Of a stretch of DNA of 48,840 bases, positions 215 through 29,107 are shown in pieces. Position 1 is the first letter of the stretch; the number at the start of each line of letters is the position of its first letter. The notes beneath the pieces were generated by a model. That model saw only the letters and a list, made by a program, of their open reading frames with translations. It had not been told where the DNA came from and did no database searches. The stretch lies in NCBI GenBank assembly GCA_017405865.1, contig JAFQZN010000052.1, positions 1-48,840 of the forward strand. The letters run 5' to 3'. The DNA is from Oscillospiraceae bacterium. Its GTDB lineage: Bacteria; Bacillota; Clostridia; Oscillospirales; Oscillospiraceae. Both the position numbers and the translations under genes were made by a program.

Positions 215-330
<116 letters not shown>

Positions 331-334
331 CAAG

Positions 335-365
335 AACCTCCTACGTCTGTAGGAGGTTTTCTTTT
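335..365 (+). terminator. Intrinsic terminator of the rRNA operon
   Basis: An inverted repeat AACCTCCTAC / GTAGGAGGTT with a short loop is followed by TTTTCTTTT. It sits five bases behind the 5S 3' end. It is the first of a series of similar hairpins in the array that follows. Confidence 0.85.
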
Positions 366-1010
366 CGCCTAAAACATTCCACAGGAATGTTTTTGCGGCG
401 AAGACAACACTTGGCCTACCTGGGAAGATAGGTAACGCCAACACTGAAACCTCCTACTTATGTGGGAGGTTTTTTCATGCCTATACCCGCCAAGTATTGC
501 GTTCGCCTAAAACGCTCCACCGGAGCGTTTCTTCACGGCGAAGACAATCCTTGGCCTGCCTGGGAAGATAGGTAACGCCAACACAAGAACCTCCTACGAA
601 AGTAGGAGGTTTTTTCGTATCTGTACCCGCCAAGTATTGCGTTCGCCTAAAACGCTCCACCGGAGCGTTTCTTCACGGCGAAGACAATCCTTGGCCTGCC
701 TGGGAAGATAGGTAACGCCAACGTGAATAGACCTCCTACTACGGTAGGAGGTCTTCTTCTTTGCCAAGTATTGTGCTTGCCTAAAGCATTCCACCGGAAT
801 GCTTTTTAACGGCAAGGACAACACTTGGCCTACCCGGGAAGATAGGTAACGCCAACACAAGAACCTCCTACGTCTGTAGGAGGTTTCTTTTCGCCTAAAA
901 CATTCCACAGGAATGTTTTTGCGGCGAAGACAACACTTGGCCTACCCGGGAAGATAGGTAACGCCAACATGCATAACAAAAGCTCCTACGAAAGTAGGAG
1001 CTTTTGTTAT
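366..1010 (+). repeat. Tandem array of 5S-tail and terminator-hairpin modules
   Basis: Five further copies of the 5S 3' tail (core GATAGGTAACGCCAAC, starting near 427, 567, 707, 841 and 953; the true 5S copy starts at 314) are spaced 112-140 nt apart. Between them lie two alternating hairpins: one with CCTCCTAC/GTAGGAGG arms and a T-run, and one whose outer arms are TTCGCC/GGCGAA. The stem arms differ between units in a compensatory way (ACATTCC/GGAATGT, ACGCTCC/GGAGCGT, GCATTCC/GGAATGC). The last hairpin, GCTCCTAC/GTAGGAGC, ends near 1008. The array holds no plausible gene. It may be a stack of terminators or a set of small structured RNAs. Confidence 0.85.
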
Positions 1011-1011
1011 G

Positions 1012-1110
1012 CAATGAATTGCGCCTGACGGCGCGTGAATTGACCTACGGTCATGAATTGCGCTTCGTGCATGAATTGCCCTGCGGGGCATGGGGAGCGC
1101 AATTCATGCC
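1012..1110. repeat. Short direct repeats with variable mini-hairpins
   Basis: The motif TGAATTG recurs about every 17-23 nt. Between copies lie mini-hairpins whose arms change together: CGCC-tgac-GGCG, ACC-tac-GGT, CCC-tgc-GGG. The stretch closes with GCGCAATTCATG, the reverse complement of the repeat with its arm. A related two-unit version is at 31154-31200. No coding content is evident. Confidence 0.7.
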
Positions 1111-1125
1111 TGTGAAATGGTGATA

Positions 1126-28935: not shown

Positions 28936-28954
28936 GAATGTAACCGCATAACGA

Positions 28955-29050
28955 CCTTCTTCGGGGTGTCGGATGCTTCCGGCTGAGATTGGGCGAACAG
29001 ACGCCCTGACCCGCGAACCTGAAACGGATCATGCCGTCGTAGGGAAAGAT
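28955..29050 (+). promoter_or_regulatory. TPP riboswitch (THI element)
   Basis: The conserved thi-box pieces appear in order: TCGGGGTG, GGCTGAGA, GACCC..GAACCTGA and CGTAGGGAA. These form the aptamer that binds thiamine pyrophosphate. A thiamine transporter follows directly, which agrees with the identity. Confidence 0.95.
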
Positions 29051-29060
29051 GGGAAAGAAA

Positions 29061-29107
29061 TTTCCGCAGTGCTTTCCGGGGACGGTCAGCCATGCGGAAA
29101 CTTTTTT
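29061..29107 (+). terminator. Riboswitch-controlled terminator before thiT
   Basis: TTTCCGCA (29061-29068) and TGCGGAAA (29093-29100) form a perfect 8-bp stem ahead of CTTTTTT. It lies between the TPP aptamer and the thiT ribosome site, so bound TPP probably favours termination. Confidence 0.8.

What the first reader, a model, noticed from the sequence alone, without database searches (positions are those of the whole stretch)
335..1010. Post-5S array of structured modules with compensatory stem changes
Behind the 5S gene are five extra copies of its 3' tail, each self-folding (TTGGC..GCCAA outside, TACCT..AGGTA inside), alternating with two further hairpins. Stem arms vary between units but keep pairing (ACATTCC/GGAATGT, ACGCTCC/GGAGCGT, GCATTCC/GGAATGC; also TTCGCC/GGCGAA versus TTGCC/GGCAA). 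Drift would break pairs, so RNA structure may be selected. Options: a stack of terminators, small RNAs derived from 5S, or a decoy for 5S-binding proteins. Unequal recombination between 5S copies is a plausible origin.
Basis: partly seen in the sequence, partly recalled or inferred. Interest (0 to 1): 0.72.

Follow-up and report, generated by a model that had tools for sequence, protein, structure and literature searches.

The report
5S-tail repeats linked to rRNA terminators
Behind a ribosomal RNA gene of a bacterium sit five short modules, each ending in a copy of that gene's own tail and followed by a transcription stop signal; related modules sit behind tRNA genes of related bacteria and resemble the long-known but poorly understood tRNA-linked repeats of E. 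coli.

Summary
The array is real. Behind the 5S gene (215-330) lie five further copies of its last ~22 nt, each joined to a conserved hairpin (H) and a terminator. The array recurs at a second 5S locus of this genome, in four more species of the genus, and in other genera, with up to six complete units. At one orthologous 5S locus in six species the count is 0, 0, 0, 1, at least 1, and 2.
Following H outward changed the picture. The same hairpin family sits just downstream of tRNA genes across the order, flanked by an inverted and a direct copy of that tRNA's 3' end. All 50 examined hits with a tRNA in the fetched stretch lie downstream of it.
This is the plan of E. coli tRNA-linked repeats (TLRs), including rrnB (5S - T1 - sRNA - 5S tail - T2). 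I read the array as clostridial and TLR-type: a stack of working terminators whose structured modules are transcribed only by read-through. RNA production and function are untested. The kind is known (TLRs; 5S remnants in Peptococcaceae); I found no report of this clostridial, structure-conserved version.

The parts
215..330 (+). 5S rRNA gene, the parent of the tail copies
   Evidence: Rfam RF00001, 92.9 bits
334..363 (+). Terminator T1 behind the 5S gene (11-bp stem by my scan, then a T-rich run)
364..402 (+). Unit 1, hairpin H (short unit, no inverted arm)
   Evidence: R2 match 364-402; covariation
403..443 (+). Unit 1, truncated copy of the 5S 3' end (loop GGGTGA missing, CTGCC to CTACC)
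448..477 (+). Terminator T2
485..499 (+). Unit 2, inverted arm R': exact reverse complement of 5S 286-300
   Evidence: inverted repeat I18 (15 nt, 100%)
502..542 (+). Unit 2, hairpin H
   Evidence: R2 match
543..583 (+). Unit 2, 5S tail copy
587..617 (+). Terminator T3
625..639 (+). Unit 3, inverted arm R'
   Evidence: inverted repeat I19 (15 nt, 100%)
642..682 (+). Unit 3, hairpin H
   Evidence: R2 match
683..723 (+). Unit 3, 5S tail copy (1 mismatch in the last 22 nt)
729..762 (+). Terminator T4
763..774 (+). Unit 4, inverted arm R' (12 nt)
   Evidence: inverted repeat I21
776..816 (+). Unit 4, hairpin H; its inner stem plus T run is itself scored as terminator-like at 786 by my scan
   Evidence: R2 match
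817..857 (+). Unit 4, 5S tail copy
862..889 (+). Terminator T5
890..928 (+). Unit 5, hairpin H (short unit)
   Evidence: R2 match
929..969 (+). Unit 5, 5S tail copy
970..1013 (.). Final terminator, perfect 20-bp palindrome, A-rich on one side and T-rich on the other
   Evidence: inverted repeat I12 (20 nt, 100%)

Best explanation
The array is a clostridial tRNA-linked-repeat (TLR) type array at the end of an rRNA operon. Each unit is [optional inverted copy of part of the gene's 3' end] - [hairpin H] - [direct copy of the gene's 3' end] - [terminator]. Shown: the anatomy, its recurrence behind 5S, many tRNA and one tmRNA gene of relatives, the covariation of H, the copy-number differences, and the link between terminators and gene order. 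Inferred: most polymerases stop at the first terminator, and each further unit catches some of those that read through. A minority of transcripts therefore carry one or more structured H-plus-tail modules, made in proportion to rRNA synthesis, as reported for RrB in the E. coli rrnB operon. Units are gained, lost and partly homogenised by recombination between tail copies and terminators.
For: Five tail copies, each with H and a terminator. H covaries: 10 of its 16 pairs with double changes, 31 cells, 0 of 500 shuffles as high, 16 units. Terminators track gene order: of 30 5S loci scanned, 9 are followed by tRNA-Asn within 116 nt and 0 of 9 have a scored terminator in between, against 19 of 21 of the rest; the two tRNA-linked loci that carry a unit (L029, L036) keep H and the tail without a scored terminator. 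H is downstream of tRNAs: 79 hits outside the 5S arrays examined, 50 with a tRNA in the stretch (38 distinct tRNA genes), 50 of 50 downstream of the nearest one by either distance measure, 35 within 130 nt; of those 35, 29 have a direct copy of that tRNA's 3' end (control with tails of other isotypes 1.4%) and 33 an inverted copy (control 18.9%). The E. coli tyrT repeats, read here, show inverted 10 nt - body - direct 19 nt three times; rrnB shows the 5S tail repeated (13 nt marked) between T1 and T2. Orthologous 5S locus with 0 to 2 units.
Against: No transcript data. Of the 79 H hits, 29 have no ARAGORN tRNA in the stretch; 10 of these have a T-loop-like motif (one of them a tmRNA locus), 19 have none, mostly in G196 and G341 (one of the 19, G460:C45, is a 5S-type R1 match). 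Perfect hairpins can also be kept by template switching in DNA replication without RNA selection. The module bodies do not match the Rfam RtT family, which does match the E. coli tyrT repeats (control; no RtT). The rrnB stretch showed no inverted arm at the 8-nt level. In Faecousia the unit tails differ from that genome's own 5S tail by one base, and the C38 unit of this genome has the g73-type base, against simple homogenisation. H lies on the strand opposite to the tRNA in 34 of 35 close tRNA modules, but on the 5S strand here. Some H copies score as terminator-like themselves, so T and H are not cleanly separate in function.
Confidence: 0.62

Rival explanations
1. Inert relics: duplicated and decaying 5S 3' ends behind the operon, kept only because recombination between tails keeps making them; the terminators matter, the modules do not.
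For: Stepanov and Fox read similar 5S remnants in Peptococcaceae and Pseudoalteromonadaceae as likely untranscribed and possibly pseudogenes (PMC7812874). Most relatives searched show no array match (381 of 400 family genomes without an R1 match; many are fragmented drafts), and 3 of 6 species have 0 units at the orthologous locus. Several tails are clearly degenerate (L036, L053, L066).
Against: H keeps pairing through double changes across genera. The module is kept, without a scored terminator, in front of tRNAs in L029 and L036. The same plan recurs behind unrelated tRNAs.
Confidence: 0.22
2. A miniature mobile element: H with its arms is a transposing or integrating element that uses 3' ends of stable-RNA genes as target, regenerating the gene end and leaving a direct copy.
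For: Direct copy of the gene end on the far side plus inverted copy on the near side at many different tRNAs (27 of 35 with both). A body near-identical between different tRNAs and between families (in the part shown, 78). Presence or absence at an orthologous locus. Copies with no tRNA or 5S sign in G196 and G341.
Against: No enzyme was sought or found. Only 1 viral contig carries the exact tRNA-type body pattern. The arms match the local gene, which a single element moving between tRNAs would not give unless it copies its target. A shared tRNA-Phe copy in G000 and G003 suggests vertical descent.
Confidence: 0.13
3. Decoy or processing mimic: the truncated 5S tail binds a 5S-handling protein or nuclease and buffers it.
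For: The tail copies keep the sequence on both sides of the deleted loop and the mature 3' end; in g82 6 of 6 unit tails are nearest their own 5S, and in g73 4 of 4 are nearest that type.
Against: No double change in the tail fold. Degenerate tails are tolerated. The same modules sit behind tRNAs, so a 5S-specific role cannot explain them. No transcript known.
Confidence: 0.03

Closest known systems
tRNA-linked repeats (TLRs) of E. coli, e.g. the tyrT repeats (rttR, Rfam RtT)
   Same: Modules behind tRNA or rRNA genes, one to five per locus, 3' end identical to the 3' end of the upstream gene (PMC8144298 introduction). The tyrT repeats also carry an inverted copy before the body.
   Different: Body does not match RtT (control positive in E. 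coli; none). In the tyrT stretch read the repeats follow one another directly; here an intrinsic terminator stands before each unit. H is a conserved, covarying hairpin found in 38 of 181 clostridial genera sampled, own genus included.
RrA/RrB/RrF sRNAs between the dual terminators of E. coli rrnA, rrnB and rrnD
   Same: 5S - terminator - structured module - repeat of the 5S tail - terminator (PMC8144298 passages and introduction). The sRNA is reported to be made by read-through of T1.
   Different: Up to six complete units instead of one; different sequence; no inverted arm seen at rrnB; transcription not tested here; whether these bacteria have Hfq or CsrA was not checked.
5S rRNA gene remnants of Peptococcaceae and Pseudoalteromonadaceae (Stepanov and Fox 2021)
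   Different: There the core bears large insertions and may lack either end; in this genus only the 3' end of the 5S remains, with a six-base loop deletion. The f13 genome G460 (L131) has an intermediate with more of the 5S. No link to tRNA modules was drawn in the section read.

Membership tests
tRNA-linked repeats (as described in PMC8144298) | Located in tRNA or rRNA operons, downstream of the gene | tested here: met
   Array directly behind the 5S; 50 of 50 other H copies with a tRNA in the stretch lie downstream of the nearest one. 29 of 79 had no tRNA in the stretch
tRNA-linked repeats (as described in PMC8144298) | 18-19 bp at the 3' end of the repeat identical to the 3' end of the upstream gene | tested here: met
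   Window units: 4 of 5 tails identical over 22 nt, the fifth with 1 mismatch. tRNA modules within 130 nt: 19 of 35 share 18 nt or more, 29 of 35 share 10 nt or more, 6 of 35 less
tRNA-linked repeats (as described in PMC8144298) | Transcribed with the upstream gene and processed (shown there for the rRNA-linked ones) | not testable with these tools
   No transcript data at hand
RtT RNA family (Rfam RF00391) | Covariance-model match of the module body | tested here: not met
   RtT matches four places in the E. coli tyrT stretch (control) but none in the window or relatives (with E up to 0.5, 70, 94), nor E. coli rrnB. Not filed as RtT
5S rRNA gene remnants (PMC7812874) | Downstream of a normal 5S at the end of the operon, multiple copies, each preceded by a putative terminator | tested here: met
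5S rRNA gene remnants (PMC7812874) | 5S-like core with a large insertion, lacking one or both ends | tested here: inconclusive
   5' part absent and 3' end kept; H stands before the tail rather than clearly inside a core. L131 (family f13) does show 5S loop sequence - large insertion - 5S tail
Intrinsic terminator stack | GC stem followed by a T run after each unit, absent where downstream RNA genes must be transcribed | tested here: met
   0 of 9 tRNA-followed 5S loci against 19 of 21 others, by my own scan; L021 and L029 keep weaker hairpins with T runs that it does not score
Miniature mobile element | Copies at new sites, target duplication, linked or related transposase | tested here: inconclusive
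   Target-end copies present; occupied and empty orthologous sites; enzyme not sought; 1 viral contig only, exact pattern

The most novel reading that the evidence does not exclude
Stable-RNA genes in Clostridia and in enterobacteria carry the same kind of appendage: inverted gene end - structured body - direct gene end, although the bodies are unrelated. This would be one general class of read-through RNA modules made in step with ribosome and tRNA synthesis, arising repeatedly by one mechanism that copies the 3' end of the gene both ways. In this window it is amplified five-fold behind 5S.
Probability: 0.35. Interest if true: 0.8.

Novelty: new variant of a known kind. Interest (0 to 1): 0.6.

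Why it matters
By the account in PMC8144298, TLRs have been known in E. coli since 1978 with no function shown before the rRNA-linked ones. A large clostridial family with a conserved, covarying hairpin, behind many tRNA genes and amplified behind 5S, gives the comparative material that question lacked: loci with 0 to 6 units, orthologous empty sites, and a sharp prediction about terminators. If the modules are transcribed, it would point to RNAs produced in step with rRNA in these bacteria.

Tried and rejected
Rejected: a selected self-fold of the 5S tail (no double changes, mostly broken outside in L039). An origin special to 5S (the same hairpin family behind tRNAs). A phage-borne element (one viral contig with the exact pattern). 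Assembly artefact: unlikely, since units recur in independent genomes and at a second locus of this one.

Led nowhere: the loose H pattern over 14 genomes gave no clear excess over its control. Rfam gave no family for H. Literature searches gave nothing on this array. The tenth paper search was not used.

Biases and dropped rows: R1 was built from units picked by a sequence pattern of the hairpin, and R2 from R1 hits, so lean towards the structure. For A1, two duplicate units were left out, and the interrupted unit 2 of L028, the L031 unit and the L040 units did not fit the pattern. Most of the 12 genomes were chosen because R1 or H matched in them; the class sample (48 of 291, own genome counted) was not. 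Of 102 matches, 17 lie in 5S arrays, 6 weak ones were not fetched, and 79 were examined; some of the 79 are tandem units behind one tRNA (38 distinct tRNA genes). The tallies count the window's own genome. Several arrays (L039, L040, L052-L055, L060, L031) start at a contig end, so their parent 5S is not on the contig. The terminator scan is my own and missed some long final hairpins; loci are not independent. The middle of the output was cut; one search gives the counts.

Full report
What is there. The window is contig C62, 1-48840, of a 2.08 Mb draft genome in 83 contigs. Its source is not told; two congeneric genomes contain contigs that match the lengths and arrays of public MAG records titled Clostridiales bacterium ZC3RG02 and Oscillospiraceae bacterium RGIG2647 (goat omasum). 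The window opens in the 3' end of a 23S gene (1-120), followed by a 5S gene (215-330). The 5S tail core recurs without mismatch at 422, 562, 702, 836 and 948. Between copies stand a terminator (334, 448, 587, 729, 862, and a final 20-bp palindrome at 970-1013) and hairpin H (364, 502, 642, 776, 890). The copies are not plain copies: the 5S reads ACTTGGCGGGTGACTGCC; the units read CTTGGCCTACC or CTTGGCCTGCC at that place; six bases of a loop are gone. Units 2-4 also carry, before H, an inverted piece of the 5S; in units 2 and 3 it is the exact reverse complement of 5S 286-300, 15 nt.

Is it more than chance or a local accident? A second 5S locus of the genome has one unit. A third, followed by tRNA genes, has none. 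Of 60 genomes (own included) the array query matched 18, several only through the 5S gene itself; in the same genus real arrays are in G001, G003, G004 and G011. A covariance model of one unit, R1, matched 19 of 400 genomes of the family (own included), in 10 of 106 genera; some of these are H alone. Reading the loci showed arrays or array pieces in the genera labelled g1, g73, g82, g119 and g120, with seven H copies and six complete 5S tails in G177. A tail pattern, whose reversed control had no hit in the same 400 genomes, matched 9 of 400. At one orthologous locus, recognised by its neighbouring gene in 6 of 16 loci compared, the unit number is 0 (G007, G003, G006), 1 (this genome, C38), at least 1 (G001) and 2 (G011) (unit numbers).

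Structure. On 16 distinct units from six genomes, H has 16 pairs, 10 of them with changes on both sides. The whole three-helix structure has 31 doubly changed cells, all in H, 0 of 500 shuffles as high, and sliding the partner destroys the signal. The units were picked by a hairpin-like pattern, so the numbers lean towards the fold. The slide contrast and the many pair types (UA, AU, CG and GC at one position) still make the covariation of H convincing. It does not by itself prove selection on RNA, since template switching in DNA can also keep palindromes perfect.

Terminators. For 30 5S loci I scanned the stretch up to the next tRNA, or 700 nt. Nine loci have tRNA-Asn within 116 nt: none has a scored terminator between. 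Of the 21 others, 19 have at least one. By hand, one-sided hypergeometric, this is about 4 in a million; the loci are not independent. Two of the nine carry a unit: L029 keeps H and the tail with a mismatch in the terminator stem, and L036 keeps H and the tail with no such hairpin. So the terminators behave like terminators, and H plus tail is tolerated in a stretch that must be transcribed. The same scan also scores H of unit 4, and of some other units, as terminator-like, so H may add to termination.

Following H. R1 also gave weak hits elsewhere, and reading these showed H behind tRNA genes with pieces of the tRNA. A model of H alone, R2 (18 sequences), matched all 12 genomes searched, 2-17 copies each, 102 in all. 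I examined 79 of the 85 copies outside the listed 5S arrays. Fifty have a tRNA in the fetched stretch, and every one lies downstream of the nearest tRNA, whether distance is taken to the 3' end or to the nearer edge. Thirty-five are within 130 nt, behind 35 distinct tRNA genes; 10 are at 131-350 nt and 5 farther. Of the 35, 29 have a direct copy (10 nt or more) of that tRNA's 3' end beyond H, against 1.4% with tails of other isotypes. Thirty-three have an inverted copy (8 nt or more) before H, against 18.9% (T-loops are alike). Twenty-seven have both. One further copy lies 76 nt behind a tmRNA gene. Of 29 without an ARAGORN tRNA (the tmRNA one included), 10 have a T-loop-like motif within 130 nt, against 3 of 370 control stretches; the other 19 have no such sign: 12 in G196, 5 in G341, and 2 others, one of which is a 5S-type R1 match. 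In this genome the four copies outside the 5S arrays lie behind tRNA-Phe, tRNA-Val and tRNA-Leu genes and a tRNA-Pro-like 3' piece. Class-wide, 48 of 291 genomes in 38 of 181 genera, own included, have H at E 1e-4 or better. Of 11 new loci fetched, 4 have a tRNA gene with H downstream of it (in L233 H stands between two tRNAs); of the 7 others 5 have a T-loop-like motif.

What it works like. PMC8144298 (introduction read whole; passages) describes the tRNA-linked repeats of E. coli K-12: 22 repeats at ten loci, 18-19 bp of each 3' end identical to the 3' end of the upstream tRNA or rRNA gene. [quoted passage not shown] I read two E. coli loci. At rrnB the 5S tail recurs between T1 and T2; no inverted arm showed at the 8-nt level. 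At tyrT each of three repeats has a 10-nt inverted piece of the tRNA, a hairpin body and a 19-nt direct tail. The plan is the same as here. The body is not: Rfam RtT matches the tyrT repeats but neither rrnB nor the clostridial modules. PMC7812874 (section 4 read whole) reports 5S remnants behind 5S genes of Peptococcaceae and Pseudoalteromonadaceae, sometimes several, each preceded by a putative terminator, judged likely untranscribed.

Reading. I take the array as a clostridial member, by plan, of the TLR kind: a stack of terminators whose structured modules are transcribed only by read-through, at a level tied to rRNA synthesis, amplified by recombination between tails. The anatomy, distribution, covariation and terminator logic are shown. 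Read-through, processing and any regulatory role are inferred. Against it stand the lack of transcripts, the H copies with no RNA gene in sight, the opposite strand of H in 34 of 35 close tRNA modules, tails that do not follow their own 5S exactly (Faecousia, C38), and the possibility that the modules are inert.

Novelty. The phrase 'tRNA-linked repeat' is in 2 papers of the library: PMC8144298, and an editorial (PMC9245011) seen only in the listing. The searches brought up, in the rows listed, no report of such modules in Oscillospirales. Subscription papers are mostly missing from that library, so this is weak evidence of absence.

Noticed in passing
window 1012-1113: Four small hairpins separated by TGAATTG, flanked by ATGAATTGCGC and GCGCAATTCAT, right behind the array. 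Rfam Gut-1 RNA matches 1012-1082 below its cut-off (31.9 of 50 bits). Full Gut-1 matches lie near tRNA genes of this genome (L171 1360-1435, 64.6 bits) and of G003 (L175 664-739, 81.4 bits), and a similar hairpin array follows the 5S terminator in G007 (L014, L030). Gut-1 may be another appendage of stable-RNA genes in this genus.
   Followed up: partly
L028 ~595-710 and L031 ~110-310: An insert of very roughly 110-200 nt sits inside a 5S-tail unit at a similar point in two species (G011, G001), with its own hairpin GTTGCAAC...GTTGC.
   Followed up: no
L131 (G460), 1-600: A genome of another family has two long 5S remnants that keep a loop piece (GTTCCCATTCCG) and the tail around a large insertion with an H-like hairpin: a possible link between full 5S copies and the short units here.
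   Followed up: partly
L135 (G592), 1000-1900: At least three tandem units with a tRNA-Leu 3' end and H behind tRNA-Leu, the tRNA counterpart of the window's array; the unit nearest the tRNA is the one of 35 close modules with H on the tRNA's strand.
   Followed up: partly
L056, L059 and other G341/G196 stretches: H copies with no tRNA found in the fetched stretch and, for 17 of 18 such hits in these two genomes, no T-loop-like motif within 130 nt.
   Followed up: no
window 28952-29062: TPP riboswitch.
   Followed up: no
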